Positions 353-11,237 of a stretch of 11,237 bases of DNA are shown here, piece by piece. The stretch comes from Bacteroidia bacterium (GTDB taxonomy: Bacteria > Bacteroidota > Bacteroidia > Cytophagales > Cyclobacteriaceae). A program made the translations under genes and the position numbers. The stretch's first letter is position 1. The number at the start of each line of letters is the position of its first letter. The notes under the pieces were generated by a model, which saw only the letters and a list, made by a program, of their open reading frames with translations, did no database searches and was not told the DNA's origin. Location: positions 1 through 11,237 of the forward strand of contig JAAURZ010000029.1 in the NCBI GenBank assembly GCA_012031955.1, read 5' to 3'.

Positions 353-631
353 TTATCCGATTGTTACTGTTGGTTCACCTACTGCTGCCGATGCGCCGCA
401 CAAGCAGGTGTCGCCGACCCTGATTGCCGGTTTGCCGCCTATCAGGACGGTCACACTTCCCACAAGAAATGGACTGGCTGTGGGCTGATGCACATTGGGC
501 GGAAGGGAGCAAACGTGATTGTCGCCCATCACGCAGGCGGGCATCCCTCCTATCAACACGGTCGGTTCGCCCGGTCCCATGATGGTGCCACCGTGATTGG
601 TTGTGTCGAGTACGCGTGCTGCTGCTGGCAT
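353..631 (-). CDS. PAAR-domain spike tip protein (Afp10/Pvc10 type)
   Basis: This 92-residue protein consists of little more than a PAAR domain. It has two PAAR-type repeats, GEPTVLIGGMPA at about 21-32 and GSVTVLIGGKPAIRVGD at about 58-74. The motif DTTNHGG comes first (His13), and further candidate zinc ligands are His39, Cys41, His48, Cys76 and Cys78. PAAR proteins form a metal-stabilised cone that sharpens the end of the trimeric spike. There is no N- or C-terminal extension, so it carries no fused toxin. It lies 24 bases after the spike gene and one base before the gp25 gene, the usual eCIS order of spike, tip and inner baseplate. Confidence 0.95.
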   Translation of the reverse strand: MPAAARVLDTTNHGGTIMGPGEPTVLIGGMPACVMGDNHVCSLPPNVHQPTASPFLVGSVTVLIGGKPAIRVGDTCLCGASAAVGEPTVTIG

Positions 632-655: not shown

Positions 656-2422
656 TCAATTGATTTGCACCATCGATCCGCTTATCACTGCCTGACCGCT
701 GGTCGATAGTTCGGCGCCACCACTTCCCTCCGCCTTGAACTGCGACTGCGCTGTGAGCGTGATGTTGCTGCCTTCTATTTTCACATCGCCGCTCGCTTTT
801 ATGTTTACATCGCCGGCGCTTTCGATGGTGATGCCGTCGCTGTTCATCTGTATTTTATTTCCACTTTTATCCTCCAAAAGAATGGACTCATCGTCGTCGT
901 TAAGTACGATCTTGTTGGCGCCCGGTGTTTCGATTGTGATCGACTTGAGGTCGTCATTGAAAGTGACTTTGAGTTGCCCCCGCGTGACGATGCCCTTTTC
1001 GAAATTATCCTCGGTGATGTCGTATGGCGCCGGCTTGGTACTGCTGTGCATCTTGCCGAGCACCACGGGATCGCGCGGTCGTCGTTGAAGAAACCAACCA
1101 CTACTTCGTCGCCGACTTCGGGAAAGAAGAATGTGCCTCTTGGCGCGTCGTCGTCGCCGAGTCCGCCGTCGAGCGTGGCCACGCGCGCCCAAACGCCGTC
1201 TTCTTCGTTGTGAATGACGGGAATGCGGACTTGCACGCGTCCTTCGCCGTCGGGGTCTTCGTGGATGTTGGTTACGATGCCTTGATGCAACCCGTGAATG
1301 GCGGGCACCAGGCCCGACGCGGGCTTGTCGAGAAAGTCATCGTATTTGCAGGCTGTCCATTGCTGATCCAAACCAAACTCGATATGCGTATACCATTTCT
1401 TATCCGGCGAGAGTTCGTGATAGACAGAAGCCGCAAGTGTCTTCCCGTTGAAGCGATCGCCCATGCCGGCGAGCTCTATCACGTTTCCCGGTTTTATACT
1501 GGCAACGCCAATCACTTTTACGCGGCCTCGTACTTTGGAGAGCCGGCTTCGGAGCAAGCGGGCGTCGATCCAGGCTTGCAACTCCTGATCGGGAATATGA
1601 CCTGCGTGCTGTAGCGGCCATTCGGCCAGACCAATTACGTCGGCTAACTCACTGGCTGCAATATTTCCGGGAACATCGACGCCGGGATCGCTGCCGTCGA
1701 GTTCGGTCAGTTCCTGCTTTATAAAATTCCACGACCGTCCTTTAGTGGCCGCATACTGATCGCGCGCATCCATGACGGCCTCGATCTCGATGGCGTTGTC
1801 GCCGAACGTGACGGTGAGCGCAGGCGTTTCATCTAACGACGGCGCCTTCACCGTTATCTTTCCGTCATCCGCAAACACCAGCATGCCATTGGCTTCGGCG
1901 CGGGTCAACATAAAATCCCAATCGGTAGAGGCGTACTGCACCATTTCCTGATGCGTGACAGAGGTAGCCGATACGTCGGTGTCGATGCCGGCGTAGTTGC
2001 CGATTATCTCTTCGATAATGTCACTGTCGAGGCTATCGGGTTCGAAGTATTTGTTCTTCCTGCCCACGGTCATTTTCACACTTACGTCCTTGAGTTCGAG
2101 TTGTAGCTTGGATGACTGGTCGGTTTTCGCCGCTATGCCGTGCCGTATCACAATGCCTTTGAAGATCGTTTCTTCCTCGCCCTTGTAGCCGGCTTTTTAT
2201 TTCTATTTCACTGCCTGGCTTGAAAAGATCTCCCGCACTCAGTTCAAAATCCTCGGTGGCCACGCTGCCGTCGAAGAGCACTACCTGTGCCGCCGGGATT
2301 CTATTTACTTCTTTCAAGACGGTGATAAGACTCACACCAATTTCGTCGGGAATTGCGCTGCCCCCTGCGAAAACTTTGAAAGTGGCTACGTTGGTGTTCT
2401 GCTGTGTGGTGGTCTCGGGCAT
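656..2422 (-). CDS. VgrG-like spike protein (Afp8/Pvc8 type), interrupted by two single-base indels
   Basis: The gene needs three successive frames: about 2422-2199, 2193-1078 and 1076-656. Removing one T from the T5 run at 2194-2198 and adding one G at the GG at 1077-1078 restores a 588-residue protein, a normal size for this family. The order is a gpD/gp27-like region (roughly residues 1-370), an OB-fold with DGEGRVQVRIP and FFPEVGDEVVVGFFNDD (about 380-448), then the conserved PRDPVVLGKMHS and a C-terminal repeat-rich beta-helix with GNKIQMNSDGITIES and GDVNIKASGDVKIEG. Trimers form the puncturing needle under the tube and carry the PAAR tip. As written, the reading frame would end at about 129 residues. 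The indels may be sequencing errors or real inactivation; the sequence alone cannot decide. The start follows the LysM gene by 8 bases. Confidence 0.92.
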
Positions 2423-3384: not shown

Positions 3385-3852
3385 TTAGATGACCGGATCG
3401 ACGCGGCGATAGTACTGATAAGCAAATTCAATGTTCTCGACCATGATGGAATTGTCTTGCGCGTTGAGTCCTTCCACTGACCACTTCACTGGCCAGGCAT
3501 TGATAAAGTTCCACGCTTGCAACGGTACGTGATCAGCGTTGAGGAGCACCACGGTAAGGTCGTGCGCTTCGAATTGAAATCCTTCCACTGCTTCTTTGAA
3601 CCACTGTACAAGCTGCGACCCTATAAGCATGCCGCGCTTCATGGTGAGCGTAGGATAGGTAACCGGATTGGGCAACCGGTGCGCGTACCGGTTTTCTCCG
3701 CCTTCGCGGAATTCTTCAATACCGATTTCGGCGTTGAGGCCCGACACTTCCTGGAAGCCCTGGTCGACTATGCCCGGATACTTGTTCTGAAGCCCCTCGA
3801 AGCGGACGATAAAATGAAAGCCGGTAGGAGGATAGTTCAGTTCGCGTGCCAT
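3385..3852 (-). CDS. Tail tube protein, baseplate-proximal initiator type (Afp5/Pvc5-like)
   Basis: This 155-residue protein belongs to the T4 gp19-like tube family. FHFIVRFEG, FQEVSGLNAEIG, YPTLTMKRGML and LLNADHVPLQAWNFINAWPVKW occur in the family order. Compared with the adjacent 144-residue paralogue it has a longer N-terminal loop (LQNKYPGIVDQ, about 21-31), the usual difference between Afp5-type proteins, which form the first tube ring on the hub, and the bulk tube protein. Its position directly before DUF5908 and the LysM linker supports that assignment. It starts 4 bases after the main tube gene ends. The paralogue split is known in the family; which of the two is the initiator here is an inference from order and loop length. 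Confidence 0.9.
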   Translation of the reverse strand: MARELNYPPTGFHFIVRFEGLQNKYPGIVDQGFQEVSGLNAEIGIEEFREGGENRYAHRLPNPVTYPTLTMKRGMLIGSQLVQWFKEAVEGFQFEAHDLTVVLLNADHVPLQAWNFINAWPVKWSVEGLNAQDNSIMVENIEFAYQYYRRVDPVI

Positions 3853-3856
3853 GTGC

Positions 3857-4291
3857 TTACGGTGTCTCTATCGTTAGCCCTTCGTGACACAACTCGATCG
3901 CCTCGACGGCCACTTCATTGCCTGTGGAGTTCAGCGATGGCCCTTCTACTTTACATGGCCATGCGTCTTTCACTTTCCACACCATTACCGGGTTGTGCTC
4001 TTCGTTGAGCAGGCTGATGGTGATCTCGCGTCGCTCGATATTGTTTTTCTTCACCGTGTTCAACCATTGATAAAATTCGTTGTCGGCCTTGAAGATGCCG
4101 CGCTTGAGTGTGATGTTGGAATACTGGGGTATGCCAGGCATCTTGGTCACCTGGTATTCAAATGCGTTGCCTTCGCGGTAGTCGATGGTTTGCAGTTCTA
4201 CGGTAAGTCCCGAGACTTCCGTAAACCCAATGCGTGTGCCGCCCCATGCTACCTGGAAATGAAACGCGGCCACCGGATATGATTGTGCCAT
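3857..4291 (-). CDS. Main inner tube protein (Afp1/Pvc1-like)
   Basis: This 144-residue protein has the T4 gp19-like tube fold. It contains AAFHFQVAWGG, GFTEVSGLTVELQTIDYREG, QYSNITLKRGIFK and ISLLNEEHNPVMVWKVKDAWPCKV. Hexamers stack to form the inner tube through which cargo is carried and which is driven out when the sheath contracts. It is close to the usual length of bulk tube subunits and lacks the extra N-terminal loop of the following paralogue. It lies 35 bases after sheath 2 and 4 bases before the second tube gene; no terminator is visible in either gap. Identification as a tube protein is secure; calling it the major subunit rests on gene order. Confidence 0.92.
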   Translation of the reverse strand: MAQSYPVAAFHFQVAWGGTRIGFTEVSGLTVELQTIDYREGNAFEYQVTKMPGIPQYSNITLKRGIFKADNEFYQWLNTVKKNNIERREITISLLNEEHNPVMVWKVKDAWPCKVEGPSLNSTGNEVAVEAIELCHEGLTIETP

Positions 4292-4326: not shown

Positions 4327-4890
4327 TTACGATTGTTGCAGTTTGTGAGAGAACTTGAGTATGATGAATTCCGCCGGCCTCACTGCTGCCAGGCCTATCT
4401 CCACGTTCATCCTCCCTTCAAGTATGTCGAGGGCGTTCATGGTCTGCCCCAGGCCGACCTTCACAAAGAAGGCGTCGTCGGTTTTCGCGCCCGCCAGTGC
4501 GCCGTCGCGCCACAACTTGGAGAGAAAGTTTTCTATCATTGTTTTCACTCTCAGCCAGGTGTTGGCGTCGTTTGGCTCGAACACTACAAACTCGGTGGCT
4601 TTCTTCACCGACTCTTCGATAAAAATGTACAGTCTTCTTACAGGGATATAACGCCACTCGTTGTCGTTGCCTGCCAATGTGCGTGCACCCCACACGAGGG
4701 GTCCCTTTCCCGCAAAGGTTCTGATCACGTTCACGGATTTTCCGGATGATGGATCGACATTGAGCGAACCTTGCTGTTCGTGCGTCACTTTCACTTTCGG
4801 TTCAATCACGTTCCGAACATCTACGTTGGCGGGTGCCTTCCATACACCGCGCTGTGCATCGACGCGCGCGTATATTCCCGCGACCGAACC
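4327..4890 (-). repeat. C-terminal sheath module, copy 2 (paralogous to 5821-6384)
   Basis: This 564-base coding segment is collinear without gaps with the 564-base segment at 5821-6384. The encoded 187 residues agree at 158 positions by hand count. Long DNA stretches are nearly identical, for example around 4531-4580 against 6025-6074. It is a within-operon duplication that offers a substrate for recombination or gene conversion, and it can also mislead short-read assembly. Confidence 0.8.
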
Positions 4891-5790
4891 GGAAGGCGGC
4901 AGGTCGAGATAGAGTTTCCTCAGTTCCGCTTCAACCGCCCGGAAGAGACTCGGATCTGAACCTTCCAATGAATTGAGGGCGGGTGTGTTGCTGACAGGAA
5001 TGGCCGGGTTCGGCGCGCCGGTGCCTATGTATGTCTTATTGTGCGTGATCGGCAGCGTGGCATCATAGCGATAGTTGAGCGATGTTTTGATATTGGGGTA
5101 GTACACGGCGCCATACTTCAGGTTACCCATGCCGATGCCGTTGTCTCTGAATTCCTTCACGTCGTTCAGCGGACTGATGGAGTTGTCTTTCACATCCATG
5201 ACGACAAATCTGTCGGCCAGCTTTTCACATTGGGCCAGCGCGGCGTCGTACACACTCTTGTAGTTTGCAACCGACAAGTAGTCGGGGAAAACGATCAATG
5301 TAGGCTCATCCACTTTTTCAAGAATGGCAAGGCCGCCGCGCAAACTTGTGAATGTGGTCTCATCGCCGGCAGTGACGGCGCCGCCATAGCCGTTGACGGA
5401 CACGATGTAACAAGGACCGCCGCCGTTGGCAAAATACATTTGAAGGCTGTGGTACATTTTGAATGCACTCACCGCGACGGGTTGCTCCACTTTAACGACG
5501 CGATCAATCATCGCCGCCGGCTGCCCGTCTACGCCATTGTAGCGGTCGGTAACAGTTACACGCGGCACTTCCTTGTTGGCGCCGCCGAAATGCGCTTCAT
5601 ACTCGAGCATCGATGTGATGCGGGTGGGCACCTGCAGCAACTTATTGTCGCCAGGTACGCTGTTGGGATCCTCGTTCGCCTTTTCTGTATGACCGATGAA
5701 CGCCGGTATGGCGGTCTCGACGGCGGCAATGGAGGCTGGCAATGTCTGCAGCTCTTTAATATATACGCCGGGTGTGTTTAGAATTTCCAT
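4327..5790 (-). CDS. Contractile sheath protein 2 (Afp2-4/Pvc2-4-like), intact
   Basis: This is an intact 487-residue phage-type tail sheath protein. The N-terminus TPGVYIKELQTLPASIAAVETAIPAF is the conserved arm that links neighbouring subunits. The core has the ANGGGPCYIVSV motif (about 121-132), VDEPTLIVFPD and FRDNGIGMGNLKYGAVYYPN. The C-terminal sheath domain includes GSVAGIYARVDAQRGVWKAPAN, TLAGNDNEWRY, PVRRLYIFIEESVKKATE and the final EFIILKFSHKL, which forms the C-terminal linking strand. Subunits polymerise around the tube and contract to drive it out. It follows sheath 1 by 30 bases. Over its last 187 residues it matches sheath 1 at 158 positions (my hand count), whereas the middle regions differ strongly. 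Confidence 0.95.
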   Translation of the reverse strand: MEILNTPGVYIKELQTLPASIAAVETAIPAFIGHTEKANEDPNSVPGDNKLLQVPTRITSMLEYEAHFGGANKEVPRVTVTDRYNGVDGQPAAMIDRVVKVEQPVAVSAFKMYHSLQMYFANGGGPCYIVSVNGYGGAVTAGDETTFTSLRGGLAILEKVDEPTLIVFPDYLSVANYKSVYDAALAQCEKLADRFVVMDVKDNSISPLNDVKEFRDNGIGMGNLKYGAVYYPNIKTSLNYRYDATLPITHNKTYIGTGAPNPAIPVSNTPALNSLEGSDPSLFRAVEAELRKLYLDLPPSGSVAGIYARVDAQRGVWKAPANVDVRNVIEPKVKVTHEQQGSLNVDPSSGKSVNVIRTFAGKGPLVWGARTLAGNDNEWRYIPVRRLYIFIEESVKKATEFVVFEPNDANTWLRVKTMIENFLSKLWRDGALAGAKTDDAFFVKVGLGQTMNALDILEGRMNVEIGLAAVRPAEFIILKFSHKLQQS

Positions 5791-5820: not shown

Positions 5821-6384
5821 CTATGACTCCTGAAGCTTGTGTGAAAATTTGAGGATGATGAATTCTGCCGGACGAACGGCGGCCATACCGATCTCGATGT
5901 TCATGATTCCTTCGAGTATGTCGAGGGCGGTCATGGTTTGGCCGAGCCCCACTTTCACGAAGAACGCATCCTCGGCTTTGGCACCGGCGAGTGCGCCGTC
6001 GCGCCAGAGTTTTGCGAGAAAGTTTTCGATCATGGTTTTCACTCTCAGCCATGTGTTGGCGTCGTTGGGTTCGAACACCACGTGCTCTGTCGCTTTCTTT
6101 ACCGACTCTTCCACGAAGATGTATAACCTGCGCACGGGCACGTAACGCCACTCGTTGTCGTTGCCGGCCAGTGTGCGGGAGCCCCACACGAGATTGCCCT
6201 TGCCGGCAAACTTCCTGATTACGTTAATCGATTTGCCGGTGCCGGGATGAACGTTGAGTGTGTTCTGTTCTTCGGTTGTGACGAGCACAACAGGCGCGCT
6301 GACGCCGCGCACGTCGACGTTGGCGGGCGCTTTCCATACGCCGCGTTCGCGATCCACACGTGCATAGATACCGGCTACGGAACC
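5821..6384 (-). repeat. C-terminal sheath module, copy 1 (paralogous to 4327-4890)
   Basis: This is the partner of the segment at 4327-4890: the same length, no gaps, and about 84% identity at protein level. It covers the conserved sheath C-terminal domain from GSVAGIY to the stop codon. Similarity drops sharply upstream of it, where sheath 1 carries its extra domain. Confidence 0.8.
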
Positions 6385-7534
6385 ACATGGATACAACTCC
6401 ATTTTGTATACCTGCAGCATCTCCACGATTTTATTGTAAAGGGCCTTTTCCGGGTTAACGACTTCAAGGTTGTTGCCCGATAGCGCCGCCGCATCGCCTG
6501 TACCGCTGTCGTTGTAGTCCAACGCGATTGCCGGGGCGCCCGCAGTGGCTGTGAGCGTGATTACCGGACCGACCTGTGCAACGGTGTAGCCCGGATTTGC
6601 AATAGCGCTTATGGCCTGTGCCAGTGCTGCGGCAGTAGCCGTGGCATCAACTCCTTTATCAAAGTCGGTACCTTCAACAAAGTCGTCGGTATCCACCGTG
6701 AATGTGTCGCCGTCTACTACGTCATTGTCGGTGATCACGATCTGCCCAATAGCAAGGTCGCCTGCATTGGAAACGTTGTCGAGGCTATAACCGTGGAAGG
6801 GGCCGTTGCCAGGCGTCGGGCGGTTATCCTCCACCATCACGCTGCCTTCCTGCACGTACCGGAAGATGTCGGTCTTCAAGTTAGGGTAATAGGCTGCACC
6901 GTATTTAAGGTTACCGGCTCCGACCGTGGTACGGAACGTATCGGCGTCATCTACCACCGTGGCACCGCCTGTGGCTGCGTCGAGTATGGCGAACCTGTCC
7001 TGGAGTTTGTTGCATTGTGCAAGCATCTGATCGTACACAGTTTTCCGTTCGGTGGCAGACAACTGCATGGCTTCCGGAACAACCAGCAGTGTTGGCTCAT
7101 CTTCTTCTTCCACGGCGTTGACACCGCTAATAAGGTTGGCAACCAAAATGTCTGCGGTAGTAGGTTCCGTGGTAACATAGTCTCCCACGACACGATGTAA
7201 CAAGGCCCTCCTCCATTGGCAAGTACATTCGCACCTGGTAGTACAGCAGGTAAGGAGAAAATTCGGTTGGCTCGACAATCTCTGCGGTGGTGGCCGCCAT
7301 CGTACCTGCAAGGCGCACACCGAATGATTCCGGGAAGGGCCCGCCGAATATCTGTATGAATTCCAGCAAGGACGTTATTCGCACCGGTTTGTTGACAGGA
7401 ATGGACTCACCGTTCCTTTCCTTTTTTTGCGTGTACCCGACAAACGCGGGTATCGCGGTCGCTACGGGTGCAACGGATGCCGGGAGTGTTGATATCTCTT
7501 CGACATATACGCCTGGGGTTTTGTAAATAGCCAT
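5821..7534 (-). CDS. Contractile sheath protein 1 with an extra inserted domain, interrupted by two single-base deletions
   Basis: The start MAIYKTPGVYVEEISTLPASVAPVATAIPAF is a canonical sheath N-terminal arm. The frame breaks at residue 105 and again 11 codons later. Adding one base between 7220 and 7221, and one between 7188 and 7189, restores YFANGGGPCYIVSVGDY, matching sheath 2 (YFANGGGPCYIVSVNGY), and gives a 571-residue protein. The 84-residue excess over sheath 2 comes mostly from an insertion at about residues 261-358 (6756-6463), with GDTFTVDTDDF and DATATAAALAQAISAI, of the kind seen in phage tail proteins and probably exposed on the outer surface. The C-terminal sheath domain is complete, ending EFIILKFSHKLQES. 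As written, translation from 7534 would give 135 residues. It lies 12 bases after the 378-aa gene. Sequencing error or true inactivation cannot be separated here. Confidence 0.93.
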
Positions 7535-7546
7535 ATGGATAGTCTT

Positions 7547-8683
7547 TTATATAAATACATAGATCTCTGAAGCTGGTTGGCCCGCATCCTCCTTGGTGAC
7601 ACCGCGATGCGATGGGTTGGGGAGATGTTGTATCACGCTCACGTTGCCCGGATTCTTGCGCAACTCGATGTTCAACTTAGGCTGTTCGAAAAAAGGTATG
7701 GGCACATTGGATTTAAACACGACGGTGTCGAGTCCGTTTACGCGTACATCGGTGTTCGGCTCCGCACCAATGCGGCTAAAGTTGTACACGCCGTACGGTG
7801 TTCCACCTCCGGAACCGGTATCTGTGATGAGCAGGTCGTTAGCTACCAGGTCCACTTTCTTGTTTTTGTCGGCGATGAAATATTTCCAGATGGTTGACTG
7901 TCGCCGGAACTTCAACTCGTATTCTTCCGTGGCTGCGTAGATGTGATTGGTCGCGGCTGTATAGATGATGTCCACAATGCCGACGATTTTACTTGGTACG
8001 AGGCTGCCGTCTGCATAGATAACTTCTTCCTTAAGTGTAAGTGTGTCGGCCGAATTACGAATGGTGACGGTGTACTTGCCAGTCGCCTTATCGCGAAGGT
8101 CCACCTGCTGCCGGTAAACACCGTCGACGTCCTTCTTTACAGTAAGCACGTTGGGCAGCGGGCTGCCGGTTCCATCTTTACCAGCCGACACGGGGTTGCC
8201 GGATTCATCGGTCAGCTTAAACAAAACTTCCGGTGGCGCCGCCGCTATCGTGAAGGAATACGTGAACAATGAGTCACGCAGCGAATCGACCAGGGTGTGG
8301 GTAATTTGCTCGGGATTGGCCGCATCGGTTGACACGCTGGCCGGATCGTTCTTGAAATACAGCATGTTCGACGACTTGAATTTTCGTGTCGACGACTCGT
8401 CCAGGTTCGTGATGTTCATGAACTCATCCAGGTCGATGATGCTGATGCTGAAGATCAACCTCAGGTCTTTACCCATGTTCACGAGCGGCGTAACCTCGTC
8501 TTCGGCTGCGCTGTAAAATACGACAACGCCATCGGGTTTTACCCGAAACAGCATACGACCATTCCGGAGCTGCCGGCTGGTTTGTGGCGTTGGCTGGATG
8601 ATCAGTCCCTTCGCCACGCCATCTTTGAAGTAGTCGTGACTTACTTTCAAATTGAATAGCCGGGTATACACAATGCTGCTCAT
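7547..8683 (-). CDS. Uncharacterised eCIS-linked 378-aa protein, cap-adjacent
   Basis: I do not recognise a named domain family for this protein. It is intact, has no signal peptide or membrane segment, and looks rich in beta strands. Residues 1-110 form a compact region with FNLKVSHDYFKDG, SRQLRNGRMLFRVKPDG and DLDEFMNITNLDESSTRKFK. Residues about 150-225 read like an Ig/carboxypeptidase-regulatory-like beta sandwich (PEVLFKLTDESGNPV, then VDLRDKATGKYTVTIRNSADT). The rest has DLLITDTGSGGGTPYGVY and a C-terminal ASEIYVFI. It shares an ATGA overlap with the DUF4255 gene and lies 12 bases before sheath 1, so it is probably made in step with them. A structural part of the distal cap or collar is the simplest inference; an accessory decoration or assembly factor is also possible. 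Confidence 0.85.
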   Translation of the reverse strand: MSSIVYTRLFNLKVSHDYFKDGVAKGLIIQPTPQTSRQLRNGRMLFRVKPDGVVVFYSAAEDEVTPLVNMGKDLRLIFSISIIDLDEFMNITNLDESSTRKFKSSNMLYFKNDPASVSTDAANPEQITHTLVDSLRDSLFTYSFTIAAAPPEVLFKLTDESGNPVSAGKDGTGSPLPNVLTVKKDVDGVYRQQVDLRDKATGKYTVTIRNSADTLTLKEEVIYADGSLVPSKIVGIVDIIYTAATNHIYAATEEYELKFRRQSTIWKYFIADKNKKVDLVANDLLITDTGSGGGTPYGVYNFSRIGAEPNTDVRVNGLDTVVFKSNVPIPFFEQPKLNIELRKNPGNVSVIQHLPNPSHRGVTKEDAGQPASEIYVFI

Positions 8684-9291
8684 ACCTTGTGGTTGGCTTT
8701 GGTTTTGATTTTCTCAATTGGCCGGTTGGAATCGAGCAGCGCGTGCTCCTGAAACCTGACGAGGCGCACTTTGTACAAAACCGAGGGCAGGTATTTGGTG
8801 CCTACCACCGTCCAGAAGTTATAGAGTTGTTCGAATGAGTATGAATACAATTCGACCACCAGCTTAAGCATGTCGGCATCGAAGGCCGACATGGAGGGCG
8901 AGTTGTCCTGGGTGAATACGTTTTTTGATTGGAAGAACGAGATGGCGTAAGACAACTGCTTCAGGCCTTCCACATAGTCGTCGGTGGGGTCATTGGCCTC
9001 TTTGTTCTGGAAGTTGGCGGAGATGAGGATGTACAGATTGAGTTTTATCTCCGGATTGATGTGCTCCGCCAGCCCGTCTTTATTAATATAGCTGTTGCGC
9101 TGGTCTTTAAACATTCTCTCTTCTTCTATGTTCATGAGCGACAACCCCAGCGACTTGTCGGGTATAACCACGCCACCGCTTTCGGTGGCCACGCTGGTGA
9201 GAAATACCCTGTTTACATTCGGTGTGCCGGTACGCAACTTCAAATAGCTGTTGAGTTCGTTGGTAAGGAATGACAAGGATGAGTGTATCAT
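8680..9291 (-). CDS. DUF4255 tube/sheath terminator (Afp16/Pvc16-like cap protein)
   Basis: This 203-residue protein has the Pvc16 N-terminal (DUF4255) pattern. It starts MIHSSLSFLTNELNSYLKLRTG, followed by KSLGLSLMNIEEERMFKDQ, the strand LNLYILISANF (about 84-94), a helix GLKQLSYAISFFQSKNVFTQ, and the conserved LYSYSFEQLYNFWTVVGTKYLPSVLYKVRLV (about 148-178). Family members form a hexamer that ends tube and sheath growth at the distal end of the particle. It is near the shorter end of the family's length range, with only a basic tail (KIKTKANHKV) after the domain. Its stop overlaps the next start (ATGA), and it starts 9 bases after the small upstream gene. Confidence 0.94.
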   Translation of the reverse strand: MIHSSLSFLTNELNSYLKLRTGTPNVNRVFLTSVATESGGVVIPDKSLGLSLMNIEEERMFKDQRNSYINKDGLAEHINPEIKLNLYILISANFQNKEANDPTDDYVEGLKQLSYAISFFQSKNVFTQDNSPSMSAFDADMLKLVVELYSYSFEQLYNFWTVVGTKYLPSVLYKVRLVRFQEHALLDSNRPIEKIKTKANHKV

Positions 9292-9300
9292 CGGTTGCTA

Positions 9301-9558
9301 CTATATCTTTTTAAATACAAGTTGAAAATCACCTTCTTCCACCATCCGCTCTATTATCTCCTTGAGATTGGTCTTTTGCAAATCGCGTACTAGCACTTCA
9401 TTCAACACCATGTAGGCGCGACCTTCTTTATACTCCATGCCTTCTTTGTGTCCCTTCAACAAGTCTTCCAGGTATGTGCAAGAATAAAACGGTGCCACGT
9501 AACTCTCGACCAAATGGCTGTCTTCATCTTCGATCTCCACGATCACGTCGGAACTCAT
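9301..9558 (-). CDS. Uncharacterised small acidic protein, first gene of the eCIS operon
   Basis: This gene is read as 85 residues from ATG at 9558-9556. The same frame is open to a TTG at 9651 (116 residues) with a GTG at 9621 between; I prefer the ATG because TTG is a rare start and the extra residues look low in information. The body is compact: an acidic start (DVIVEIEDEDSHLVESY), then APFYSCTYLEDLLKGHKEG, a strand-helix part (GRAYMVLNEVLVRDLQ), and a C-terminal NLKEIIERMVEEGDFQLVFKKI. No signal peptide or membrane segment is seen. I do not recognise the family. It lies 9 bases before the DUF4255 gene, so it is part of the operon; a chaperone, regulator or minor structural part are all open. 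Confidence 0.75.
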   Translation of the reverse strand: MSSDVIVEIEDEDSHLVESYVAPFYSCTYLEDLLKGHKEGMEYKEGRAYMVLNEVLVRDLQKTNLKEIIERMVEEGDFQLVFKKI

Positions 9559-9604
9559 ATTACTATAGTCCAGTGATCCCTGAGATTCGTGTTCCGCTGT
9601 CAAA

Positions 9605-9621
9605 ATGATACTTCTTATCAC
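9605..9621. repeat. Small dyad ahead of the operon start
   Basis: TGATA (9606-9610) and TATCA (9616-9620) form a perfect 5-bp inverted repeat around CTTCT. It lies 48 bases upstream of the chosen ATG of the first operon gene and could be an operator half-site pair. It is short enough to be chance, and it would be coding if translation began at the TTG at 9651. Confidence 0.25.
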
Positions 9622-9692
9622 TTCACTGGTGCCATTGTGATTGCTATTCAATGTTATGTGAAAGTGAGGCGATGATCAATGAAGATCAGACC

Positions 9693-9704
9693 TGCGCCGG
9701 CGCA
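9693..9704. promoter_or_regulatory. Perfect 12-bp palindrome TGCGCCGGCGCA
   Basis: This is a perfect dyad with no spacer, located between the LytTR regulator gene and the eCIS operon and immediately beside the two direct repeats at 9707-9741. It could be a binding site for a dimeric regulator or the stem of a short hairpin in the leader. No run of T or A follows it on either side, so it is not an intrinsic terminator. Confidence 0.4.
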
Positions 9705-9706
9705 TT

Positions 9707-9741
9707 TGGAATTACCGGCATCAAAGCTGGAATTATCGGCA
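9707..9741. promoter_or_regulatory. Candidate LytTR operator: two 14-bp direct repeats at a 21-bp period
   Basis: TGGAATTACCGGCA (9707-9720) and TGGAATTATCGGCA (9728-9741) differ at one base, and their starts are exactly 21 bp apart, two helical turns. LytTR-domain regulators such as AgrA, VirR and ComE typically bind pairs of short direct repeats at this period (9 bp plus a spacer of about 12). The pair sits 9 bases beyond the stop codon of the LytTR gene and upstream of the first eCIS gene. The core does not match the AgrA-type consensus, so the assignment rests on spacing, placement and the neighbouring regulator. Confidence 0.5.
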
Positions 9742-9749
9742 GGTAATTT

Positions 9750-10475
9750 CTAGAGGTGCTTGAGTTGTTGAAGGAATTCGAGGCGTTTTCGACGGGCCAG
9801 TGGCACGGCTTCAGCATCACTGAGAACGATAAACCCCTCCCGGGTAACGCGCTTCACATGCATGAGATTGATGAGATGTGACTTGTGGCACATGAAAAAC
9901 CCGTATGTGTCCAGGAGTTTTTTGAACTCGCCGATGTTGTAGGAACTGATCAGCGACTTCCTTCGCATGGTTACAACGCGTGTACATTTTTGGAGGCCTT
10001 CGCAGCGGATGATCTCATGCACGTAAATGAAGTCTATTCCCTCCATGGTGGGTATGCCTATGAGACGCGTGTGCGGAAGGCCGGCCTGATCCACCGGGGT
10101 ATCTGCGATTGTCTGTGTTTCCAGGTTCCTGATCGCGCTTTTCACGGAGATCACGATGTCGCCGGCGTTAAGGGGCTTGAGAATGAAGCCGCACACATGA
10201 TGACGCAGGGCGGTGATAGCGTCGTCGGCGCGGTCCGAAAGGCAGATCATCTCGCAACGGTTGCTCAGGCCCTCTGTCAATTCCAGAAGGGAATCTATGT
10301 TGAAAAGCTTCATGTCGGCAAACACCAGGCTTGGATTGACGTCATGGATCAACCTGCGCGCGATGCCAATGCCAGCCGCTTCGCCCTGCACTTTGATATC
10401 GGGAAATTGCGTGATGAGGCAACTCTTCAGATAGGAAGAGGGTTCCTGATCGATAATGATGGCGTCTATCCTCAT
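9750..10475 (-). CDS. LytTR-family response regulator (REC + LytTR DNA-binding domain)
   Basis: This is an intact 241-residue two-domain regulator. The receiver domain covers about 1-120, with acidic-pocket residues Asp9 and Glu11 in IIIDQEP, phospho-acceptor Asp54 in VFADMKLF, switch Ser80 in ICLSDR and Lys100 in GFILKPLN, so it should be phosphorylatable. The LytTR domain covers about 136-240 and shows IYVHEIIRCEG, the recognition segment FMCHKSHLINLMHVKRV and the closing VPLARRKRLEFLQQL. Such proteins normally pair with a LytS/YpdA-type histidine kinase; none is in the window. It is encoded just upstream of the eCIS genes in the same direction and is separated from them by candidate LytTR operators, so control of the injection system is the obvious inference. 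Confidence 0.95.
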   Translation of the reverse strand: MRIDAIIIDQEPSSYLKSCLITQFPDIKVQGEAAGIGIARRLIHDVNPSLVFADMKLFNIDSLLELTEGLSNRCEMICLSDRADDAITALRHHVCGFILKPLNAGDIVISVKSAIRNLETQTIADTPVDQAGLPHTRLIGIPTMEGIDFIYVHEIIRCEGLQKCTRVVTMRRKSLISSYNIGEFKKLLDTYGFFMCHKSHLINLMHVKRVTREGFIVLSDAEAVPLARRKRLEFLQQLKHL

Positions 10476-10876: not shown

Positions 10877-11237
10877 TTAAAAATTGAAAGTGAGGGAGGT
10901 CGTCCACCGGTCTCCTCCCTTTATCTCTGCCTGATCGTCGCTGTTGTAAGTTTGCGAAACAGGTCGCTGGAAATTTACGCCCCACGTAAAGCGCCCGACG
11001 TACACATCTAAACCGGCGGATGCAAGCGTGGCGGAGCCGCCGGTGCGCAAGATGGCGACGTGCGTCCAAGCGCCGAAACTGACGGTCCGCGTCGTTTTTG
11101 TGTCAGGGATCACCGAGACGTTGGCGATTTCCCAGAACCCGTCCTCCGTGATGCGGGGAGCTCCAAGATCCGTGCCCAGCGTCCATAAGGTCTGGCGGGT
11201 CCCTTGGCTAGCGGGATTGGGACGAACCCAACCCTGG
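10877..11237 (-). CDS. C-terminal part of an outer-membrane beta-barrel protein, 5' end outside the window
   Basis: The frame is open from the window edge to TAA at 10879-10877, giving 120 C-terminal residues. Alternating strands with aromatic residues and turns are visible: GFWEIANVSVIPDT, VSFGAWTHVAILRTGG, LDVYVGRFTWGVNFQRPV, then DRWTTSLTFNF. The last strand ending in Phe is the typical sorting signal of outer-membrane barrels recognised by BamA. PVSQTY followed by a closing strand resembles the ends of putative outer-membrane transporters of Bacteroidota, but the family cannot be fixed from this fragment. It runs in the same direction as the regulator but is separated from it by about 400 bases, so a separate unit is likely. 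Confidence 0.7.
   Translation of the reverse strand, partial: QGWVRPNPASQGTRQTLWTLGTDLGAPRITEDGFWEIANVSVIPDTKTTRTVSFGAWTHVAILRTGGSATLASAGLDVYVGRFTWGVNFQRPVSQTYNSDDQAEIKGGDRWTTSLTFNF

What the first reader, a model, noticed from the sequence alone, without database searches (positions are those of the whole stretch)
9707..9741. Direct repeats with LytTR-operator spacing between a LytTR regulator and the eCIS operon
Two 14-bp near-identical repeats have starts 21 bp apart, the geometry known for LytTR-domain binding, and stand exactly between the regulator gene and the operon it would control. The base sequence does not match the AgrA-type consensus, so it may be a lineage-specific operator. 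This would supply a phospho-signal input to an eCIS, whose control in Bacteroidota is poorly known to me.
Basis: partly seen in the sequence, partly recalled or inferred. Interest (0 to 1): 0.7.

Follow-up and report, generated by a model that had tools for sequence, protein, structure and literature searches.

The report
Three-box switch for bacterial injection machine
The repeats between a regulator gene and the genes for a phage-tail-like injection machine are two of three evenly spaced docking sites of a promoter that recurs in distantly related bacteria, so this DNA is very probably the machine's on-switch, although the regulator may not be an ordinary phosphorylation-driven one.

Summary
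The repeats are real: the only 13/14 direct repeat with 10-40 bp spacing in the window, matched in 1 of 20,000 shuffles. In 15 related loci the same LytTR gene stands beside eCIS genes. Between regulator and operon lies a conserved element: two half-sites xCCGTTNRTTCC 20-21 bp apart, a weaker third half-site (TGGTCARAT core) 21 bp on, a TTG at fixed distance (-33) and a partial TAnnTTTG (-7), about 44-100 bp before the operon's first gene. Leave-one-out scans rank the true site first in 17 of 17 loci; 0 of 60 eCIS loci chosen without regard to the regulator carry regulator, small gene or element. Two points change: on the operon strand the half-sites fit the general LytTR consensus (recalled), and phospho-signal input is doubtful: the phosphoacceptor Asp is present in 8 of 26 linked or element-bearing regulators versus 54 of 58 others, five lack a receiver, and no LytS-type kinase gene lies near in 8 of 8 genomes checked. 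The window's own protein keeps the Asp. Three-repeat LytTR operators are known (RcoM-1, CoxC). No binding or transcription was measured.

The parts
9750..10475 (-). LytTR-domain regulator, 241 aa; N-terminal receiver-like domain below the Pfam cut-off, C-terminal LytTR DNA-binding domain
   Evidence: Pfam LytTR 45 bits (cut-off 22.6), Response_reg 20 bits (cut-off 30.2); one relative at 88-89% identity, the other 47 aligned at 49-63%
9729..9740 (-). half-site 1, GCCGATAATTCC
   Evidence: repeat copy; PWM xCCGTTNRTTCC; leave-one-out rank 1 of 22,388 positions for the whole element
9708..9719 (-). half-site 2, GCCGGTAATTCC, 21 bp from half-site 1
9687..9698 (-). half-site 3 (weaker), GGCGCAGGTCTG, exactly 21 bp from half-site 2; family core TGGTCARAT
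   Evidence: core matched 7 of 9 here; +21 bp is the best offset for the half-site PWM among 35 offsets tested over 21 loci
9677..9681 (-). -33-like element CATTG (inferred)
   Evidence: TTG at this fixed offset in 16 of 21 loci; Bacteroidota -33 consensus TTTG (PMC6847099 passage)
9649..9656 (-). -7-like element TAACATTG, 20 bp after the TTG (inferred); predicted start of transcription about 9644
   Evidence: 5 of 6 fixed positions of TAnnTTTG, best of 12 offsets tried, no chance level computed; consensus and its position from PMC6847099; start site inferred, not measured
9301..9621 (-). first gene of the operon: about 106-aa protein of an undescribed family, probably starting at GTG 9621 rather than TTG 9651, because the TTG would lie inside the -7 element
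   Evidence: alignment with 15 relatives; no Pfam, NCBIfam or PADLOC match; 502 homologues at E<=1e-3
8680..9291 (-). Pvc16/Alg16A-like tail-terminator (cap) protein
   Evidence: Pfam Pvc16_N 105 bits
7547..8683 (-). 378-aa protein of the eCIS operon, position of a cap adaptor (role inferred)
   Evidence: no Pfam or NCBIfam match, no convincing PDB match; weak tblastn matches in L001, L007, L073
5821..7534 (-). sheath-like gene, open in two overlapping frames
   Evidence: ORFs 7127-7534 and 5821-7320; sheath identity by resemblance of the translation to 4327-5790, no family search hit (NCBIfam none)
4327..5790 (-). contractile sheath protein
   Evidence: PDB 7adz (AlgoCIS entry by my reading) E 6e-141, 7b5h (All3325 protein) E 9e-139; Pfam sheath domains
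3385..4291 (-). two inner-tube proteins (3857-4291 and 3385-3852)
   Evidence: Pfam PF06841 165 and 135 bits
2431..3213 (-). CIS_tube protein
   Evidence: Pfam PF19266 149 bits
844..2151 (-). VgrG-like spike protein (part of a gene spread over three frames)
   Evidence: NCBIfam vgr_GE 168.5 bits; ORFs
353..631 (-). PAAR spike tip
   Evidence: Pfam PF05488 72 bits

Best explanation
The repeats are the two upstream half-sites of a three-half-site operator for the adjacent LytTR protein, placed just upstream of a Bacteroidota-type promoter (-33 CATTG, -7 TAACATTG) that drives the eCIS operon, starting with a small orphan gene. LytTR domains would bind head to tail on one face of the DNA (21-bp, two-turn period). 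The pair of boxes 2 and 3 is centred about 59 bp upstream of the predicted start and would help RNA polymerase fire; box 1 would add cooperativity. The regulator is largely dedicated to this site. Its input is probably not a classical kinase-to-aspartate relay across the family: more likely its own level or oligomeric state, an unlinked or non-phosphate signal, or the co-encoded small protein. Shown: sequence, spacing, conservation and co-occurrence. Inferred: binding, activation rather than repression, promoter use, nature of the signal.
For: Direct repeat unique in the window, 1 of 20,000 shuffles. In 22 linked loci, repeats of at least 10/12 occur at spacing 20 (6 loci), 21 (2) and 27 (1) and at no other spacing from 13 to 35; in 63 other loci counts are 0-3 at every spacing, with 3 each at 20 and 21. 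Half-site PWM. Third site: 13 of 21 loci match the core 7/9 or better at exactly +21 (a 7/9 match anywhere in the 16 positions searched has chance 0.044), and +21 is the best of 35 offsets for the box PWM. TTG at a fixed offset in 16 of 21 loci. Leave-one-out: 17 of 17 true sites rank first. Profile R1 matches loci outside the model directly behind the regulator stop: L022 36.7 bits, L004 30.9, L005 27.9, L013 19.1. The distance regulator-to-box varies (1-412 bp in 16 loci) while TTG-to-operon start is 44-100 bp, and in L011 the regulator points the other way yet the element stays with the operon. 0 of 60 PF14065 loci have regulator, small gene or element within about 1.5 kb. In 196 genomes of one family only the 3 with the regulator have a site of 30 bits or more. 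In 17 of 22 host genomes the best site is the one at the regulator. Precedent: AgrA promoter-proximal repeats centred near -60 (PMC4227749 passage); LytTR repeats mostly 10 bp upstream of -35 in LRS operons (PMC6193735 passage).
Against: No binding, start-site or expression data. The third site in the window is weak (GGCGCAGGTCTG). In 8 of 21 loci the third-site core matches only 4-6 of 9 (L002, L009, L010, L014, L015, L016, L026, L074), and in three of these (L009, L015, L074) it is not at +21; three more linked loci (L024, L025, L032) were not put into that count. The third-site consensus was read from the same loci it was counted in. 5 of 22 host genomes gave no genome-wide match at E<=0.1. 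4 of 25 small-gene loci gave no R1 match at E<=1 (L193-L196); L195 has a divergent copy by eye. No small gene was found at L009 and L016 although both stand beside eCIS genes. The -7 element matches only 3-5 of 6 positions. Seven R1 matches at E<=1 are not near the regulator end (L004 second site, L017, L019, L023 first site, L031, L056, L074). A sigma-70-type scan finds a 9/12 match at 9662-9634, at chance level (4 found, 2.1 expected). Genome-wide searches scored only 150 or 26 candidates per genome.
Confidence: 0.82

Rival explanations
1. The same operator, but the regulator is an ordinary phosphorylated response regulator fed by an unlinked histidine kinase.
For: The window's protein keeps D9, E11, the phosphoacceptor D54 and K100; in the close family (A1) D54 is D in 38 of 49 rows and K100 is K in 47 of 49. 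Many of the 120 listed homologues carry a precomputed receiver domain PF00072. The element-bearing L004 has a full receiver, 77 bits.
Against: Across 26 linked or element-bearing loci D is found in 8, another residue in 12 and no aligned residue in 6, one of which (L009) is cut by a contig end; of the 14 that stand beside eCIS genes 4 have D. Five proteins have no receiver, three of them beside eCIS genes (L020, L029, L039). Receiver scores are below the Pfam cut-off in the window, L001, L002, L073 and L189, and none is found in L014. No PF06580 kinase near the regulator in 8 of 8 genomes, while in one of them 15 of 16 other LytTR genes have one within 3 kb. Other kinase families were not searched. 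(Confidence raised from 0.20 to 0.25 on re-reading.)
Confidence: 0.25
2. The LytTR protein is a repressor of the eCIS promoter, as CoxC is for cox genes, and a signal relieves it.
For: Three LytTR repeats next to a promoter are the CoxC arrangement, and CoxC represses (PMC11347149 abstract and passages).
Against: CoxC's repeats overlap the -35 box; here the third half-site ends 7 bp upstream of the TTG, its conserved core 5 bp, near the place used in LRS promoters and by AgrA. The poor -7 match suggests a weak promoter that needs help.
Confidence: 0.12
3. The repeats form an RNA element or terminator between regulator and operon.
For: There is an inverted match around the repeats (I22) and a perfect 12-base palindrome at 9693-9704 (read by eye).
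Against: Fold z-score -0.83; no consensus structure in 17 relatives; no terminator-like site in 9640-9750; the conserved columns are the boxes, not paired arms.
Confidence: 0.02
4. The repeats are a chance duplication, or shared sequence kept only by descent.
For: They lie only 9 bp after the regulator stop, and in 10 of 16 loci the first box is within 11 bp of it.
Against: 1 of 20,000 shuffles; conserved boxes separated by less conserved spacers in loci whose regulators are 33-61% identical to the window's; the element's place is tied to the operon rather than to the regulator end.
Confidence: 0.02

Closest known systems
RcoM-1 and CoxC LytTR operators (CO-responsive regulators)
   Same: Three LytTR direct repeats at two-helical-turn intervals beside the target promoter; CoxC senses through its own N-terminal domain rather than a kinase (PMC11347149 abstract and passages)
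   Different: Repeat sequence TTCNNGCA/TTNNNGCN rather than CCGTTNRTTCC; CoxC has an MHYT sensor domain and its repeats overlap -35; target is cox genes, not an eCIS
AgrA-type paired operators
   Same: Direct repeats, the promoter-proximal ones centred about -60 (PMC4227749 passages); similar half-site core as I recall it
   Different: Pairs rather than three half-sites; kinase-coupled (recalled); -35/-10 promoter
LytTR Regulatory Systems (HdrRM, BrsRM)
   Same: LytTR regulators with direct repeats separated by 11-13 bp, immediately upstream of the promoter (PMC6193735 passages)
   Different: Those repeats drive the regulator's own operon with a membrane inhibitor; here the repeats lie 3' of the regulator, drive the next operon, and the partner is a small protein with no Pfam match
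GerE/LuxR-type eCIS regulators
   Same: A regulator gene next to the eCIS operon (25.8% of loci; PMC8213781 passages)
   Different: Different DNA-binding family; the passages seen mention no operator
AlgoCIS (Algoriphagus machipongonensis)
   Same: Best PDB match of the window's sheath (7adz); Pvc16/Alg16A-type cap gene
   Different: A term search of its main text finds no 'regulator' (PMC8894135); whether it carries this LytTR was not tested

Membership tests
LytTR-domain direct-repeat operator | Direct repeats with about two-turn (20-22 bp) start-to-start spacing | tested here: met
   21 bp in the window; spacings 20 and 21 account for 8 of 9 hits in 22 linked loci
LytTR-domain direct-repeat operator | Half-site resembles the LytTR consensus | tested here: inconclusive
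   PWM xCCGTTNRTTCC looks alike, but the comparison consensus is recalled and comes from no call; the window's copies deviate at the central base
LytTR-domain direct-repeat operator | Repeats lie just upstream of a promoter | tested here: inconclusive
   TTG fixed in 16 of 21 loci, -7 partial match; start of transcription not measured
LytTR-domain direct-repeat operator | Bound by a LytTR protein | not testable with these tools
   needs a binding assay; only co-occurrence shown
Three-repeat LytTR operator (RcoM-1/CoxC kind) | Third repeat at the same interval | tested here: met
   +21 in the window; 13 of 21 loci match the core 7/9 or better at +21; the copy in the window is weak
Canonical two-component system | Conserved phosphoacceptor Asp and receiver | tested here: not met
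   D in 8 of 26 linked or element-bearing loci; receiver absent in five (four of the five scanned). The window itself keeps D54 and its close family has D in 38 of 49, so for the window alone the test is open
Canonical two-component system | Cognate histidine kinase gene nearby | tested here: not met
   no PF06580 hit within 37 kb on the same contig in 8 of 8 genomes; nearest in G001 143 kb; other kinase families not searched; window too short to judge
LytTR Regulatory System (LRS) | Membrane inhibitor protein in the regulator's operon | tested here: inconclusive
   next gene codes for a compact alpha/beta model, pLDDT 85, which speaks against it, but no transmembrane predictor was run
Extracellular contractile injection system | Sheath, tube proteins, CIS_tube, VgrG, PAAR and Pvc16 in one cluster | tested here: met

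The most novel reading that the evidence does not exclude
A phosphorylation-independent LytTR regulator, its three-box promoter and a new ~100-aa partner protein form one transferable control cassette that switches on whole weapon-like operons across Bacteroidota: contractile injection systems in some loci, subtilase or caspase operons in others, with the partner protein acting as the sensor or feedback brake.
Probability: 0.3. Interest if true: 0.8.

Novelty: new variant of a known kind. Interest (0 to 1): 0.6.

Why it matters
How Bacteroidota turn on eCIS operons is little known to me; the survey consulted names GerE, BTAD and RfaH regulators but no operator in the passages seen. A conserved 66-bp element with a predicted start site gives a direct handle: mutate three boxes, or delete one gene, and see whether the particles appear. 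The regulators also show DNA recognition kept while the receiver decays or vanishes, which raises the question of what signal now controls an injection machine.

Tried and rejected
Rejected: chance; RNA structure or terminator. Disfavoured: strict two-component input across the family; LRS membership.

Led nowhere: the LytTR family in viral contigs (no relative confirmed); plasmids gave 19 records with relatives of at most 28.1% identity. Fold search of the small-protein model gave no match with E<=0.001 in PDB or viral models. PADLOC gave caspase/subtilase-type hits for three of six neighbouring genes of non-eCIS cassettes and none for the window's regulator or small protein. Of the 7 weak R1 hits in other genomes of the family (18.4-20.5 bits) one, L212, has a LytTR match in its stretch.

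In print: 'contractile injection system' with 'LytTR' gave 0 papers. Two looser searches listed none joining the two: 4 of 4 papers lack 'contractile injection', and the 15 listed of 168 all have zero 'LytTR'; 153 were not listed. Only the open-licence library was searched.

Rows dropped: L081 and L086 duplicate L001 and L002 and were left out. L011 was counted among the others because its eCIS lies on the opposite strand. A4 uses 17 of the 24 loci (left out: L009, L010, L015, L024, L025, L032, L074); searches use 21 of those 24 (left out: L024, L025, L032). The sites were first chosen with a typed seed motif.

Full report
The observation. The two 14-bp copies are at 9707-9720 and 9728-9741, 93% alike, 21 bp apart. 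They are the only 13/14 pair with spacing 10-40 in the window; 1 of 20,000 dinucleotide shuffles of the 98-bp stretch 9652-9749 holds such a pair at spacing 15-30, none at 20-22. They lie between the LytTR gene (9750-10475, minus) and the first gene of an eCIS operon on the same strand. The operon holds Pvc16_N, sheath, two gp19-type tubes, a CIS_tube protein, VgrG and PAAR; the sheath at 4327-5790 is closest in the PDB to 7adz (E 6e-141) and 7b5h (E 9e-139), which I take to be AlgoCIS and the cyanobacterial thylakoid-anchored CIS.

Relatives. The regulator has 303 homologues at E<=1e-3. A profile of 49 of them drew 342 stretches from genome contigs, 308 confirmed, the best 80 kept. Fifteen distinct related loci carry the regulator beside eCIS genes: L001, L002, L003, L007, L009, L010, L011, L014, L015, L016, L020, L029, L039, L073, L085. 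A small gene between them was found in all but L009 and L016. Record titles range over Pseudochryseolinea, Mangrovivirga, Poritiphilus, Christiangramia, Flavilitoribacter, Phaeodactylibacter, Lewinella, Flavobacteriaceae and Bacteroidales. Seven more loci (L008, L025, L026, L032, L034, L051, L072) have regulator and small gene but no eCIS gene found in the stretch held. In the genomes of four of these (L008, L026, L034, L072) tube proteins (PF06841) lie on other contigs; in the other three none was found.

The element. In 22 linked loci a plain search for repeats of at least 10/12 gives spacing 20 in 6 loci, 21 in 2, 27 in 1 and nothing else from 13 to 35; in 63 other loci the count is 0-3 at each spacing, 3 each at 20 and 21. 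A PWM trained from a typed seed gives [A/C/G]CCGTTNRTTCC. Downstream of the pair, the best match to a third core, TGGTCARAT, sits at exactly 21 bp in 18 of 21 loci. In two of those 18 (L010, L014) the match is 4-5 of 9, chance level, and in three (L002, L016, L026) it is 6 of 9; 13 of 21 reach 7 of 9 or more, against a chance of 0.044 each for any of 16 positions. The box PWM itself, slid from +10 to +44 behind box 2, scores best at +21 (-4.3 against a mean of -14.2, sd 4.0), so I read the third core as a degenerate half-site. A TTG stands at one fixed offset behind it in 16 of 21 loci, and the best partial TAnnTTTG (3-5 of 6, best of 12 offsets) lies 20-22 bp further in 19 of 21. The Bacteroidota consensus is TTTG (-33) and TANNTTTG (-7) (PMC6847099, two passages seen). 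In the window these are CATTG 9677-9681 and TAACATTG 9649-9656, which predicts a start near 9644 and puts boxes 2 and 3 around -59. AgrA's promoter-proximal repeats are centred near -60 (PMC4227749, passages).

Tests of the element. Leave-one-out models rank the true site first in 17 of 17 loci over 7,384-41,390 positions each; in 8 of the 17 the closest relatives were left out too. This is a partial control, because the sites were first chosen with the full set. Profile R1 (17 sequences, no structure) over 82 sources gives 39 matches at E<=1. In loci not used for the model, matches fall directly behind the regulator stop in L022, L004, L005 and L013 and, as weaker partial matches at or near the stop, in L012, L018, L021, L023, L024 and L027. 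Seven matches are elsewhere: a second site in L004, one in L023, and those in L017, L019, L031, L056 and L074. In L011 the regulator is divergent and the match lies before the small gene on the operon strand. Of 25 small-gene loci 21 have a match at E<=1; 15 of the 21 are model members, and of the 10 non-members 6 match and 4 (L193-L196) do not.

Controls. Negative: the 30 best PF14065 loci of each of two draws (147 of 390 and 77 of 395 genomes with a match; stretches with about 1.5 kb on either side) contain no regulator, no small gene and no element, 0 of 60 each. The protein part was repeated with a positive control that found both genes in 7 of 7 loci. These are the best-scoring loci, not a random draw. 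Specificity: of 196 genomes in one family 10 match at E<=0.01 and only G001, G064 and G164 reach 30 bits (the next is 20.5). The same three are the only ones of 390 with a regulator match at E<=1e-30. Their own sites are in the model, so this tests specificity, not sensitivity. In 22 host genomes 17 have a match at E<=0.1; in each of the 17 the best site is the one at the regulator, and nine further sites are weak (E 0.01-0.1). Five have none (G394, G395, G397, G403, G409). Five further genomes give 1-2 sites each; the two sites in G796 lie on one contig about 3 kb apart.

Operon anchoring. The distance from regulator stop to box 1 runs from 1 to 412 bp in 16 loci, but from the TTG to the operon's first start codon it is 44-100 bp (two of the starts used are off by one base). 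The element thus belongs to the operon's promoter. The window's small gene must then start downstream of the TTG at 9651, which lies in the -7 box; GTG 9621 fits the alignment.

Input. In the close family the phosphoacceptor column is D in 38 of 49 and the Lys is K in 47 of 49, and many listed homologues carry a Pfam receiver. In 26 linked or element-bearing loci (window not counted) it is D in 8, N in 5, E in 2, H in 2, K, G and T in one each, and unaligned in 6; in 58 other LytTR proteins it is D in 54. Of the 14 among the 26 that stand beside eCIS genes, 4 have D (L002, L007, L016, L085). Complete ORFs of 152-197 aa without receiver occur at L020, L029, L034, L039 and L074 (Pfam on all but L039); the first two and L039 stand beside eCIS genes, L034 beside the small gene only, and L074 has only a weak box pair. 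The sixth unaligned one, L009, is cut by a contig end. PF06580 kinases lie at least 37 kb from the regulator, or on other contigs, in 8 of 8 genomes. In G001 the nearest is 143 kb away, while 15 of the 16 other LytTR genes have one within 3 kb. Only this kinase family was searched. A kinase relay is thus not a shared requirement, though the window's protein could still be phosphorylated.

The small protein. It has 502 homologues at E<=1e-3, none of the 120 listed with a Pfam domain, and no Pfam or NCBIfam model. A model from 54 sequences is confident (pLDDT 85, pTM 0.76) but matches no solved or viral fold with E<=0.001. It was absent from the 60 regulator-less eCIS loci and also stands before operons with S8 subtilases (L034, L051, L072) and a C14 caspase (L026), so a regulatory partnership is plausible but unproven.

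Comparison with the known. Three LytTR repeats at two-turn intervals are described for RcoM-1 and CoxC (PMC11347149, abstract and passages), and LytTR activators with repeats upstream of the promoter for LRS (PMC6193735, passages). What appears new is the combination: a widespread Bacteroidota cassette of a LytTR with a decaying receiver, three CCGTTNRTTCC-type boxes beside a -33/-7 promoter, a new small protein, and an eCIS as the target. A full-text search found no paper with both 'LytTR' and 'contractile injection system' (looser searches, listings only). That speaks only for the open-licence library held here.

Noticed in passing
window 5821-7534 (minus): A sheath-like gene is open in two overlapping frames (7127-7534 and 5821-7320), suggesting a frameshift or an assembly error.
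   Followed up: no
window 656-2422 (minus): The VgrG-like spike gene is spread over three frames (2033-2422, 844-2151, 656-1192).
   Followed up: no
L034, L051, L072, L026: The same regulator plus small gene stands before operons with S8 subtilases or a C14 caspase instead of eCIS genes.
   Followed up: partly
G392 (L184, L195, L197): One genome has three regulator-small-gene-eCIS loci; the element is clear in one, weak in another and divergent in the third.
   Followed up: partly
L004 1590-1652 and 4626-4688: Two copies of the element about 3 kb apart near genes for apparently secreted proteins, with a regulator that has a full receiver.
   Followed up: partly
window 10877-11236 (minus): Incomplete ORF upstream of the regulator, running off the window's end; not identified.
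   Followed up: no
genomes of the G001 family: Pvc16 genes are common (147 of 390 genomes) but this regulator was found in 3 of 390, so it serves only a minority of eCIS loci there.
   Followed up: no
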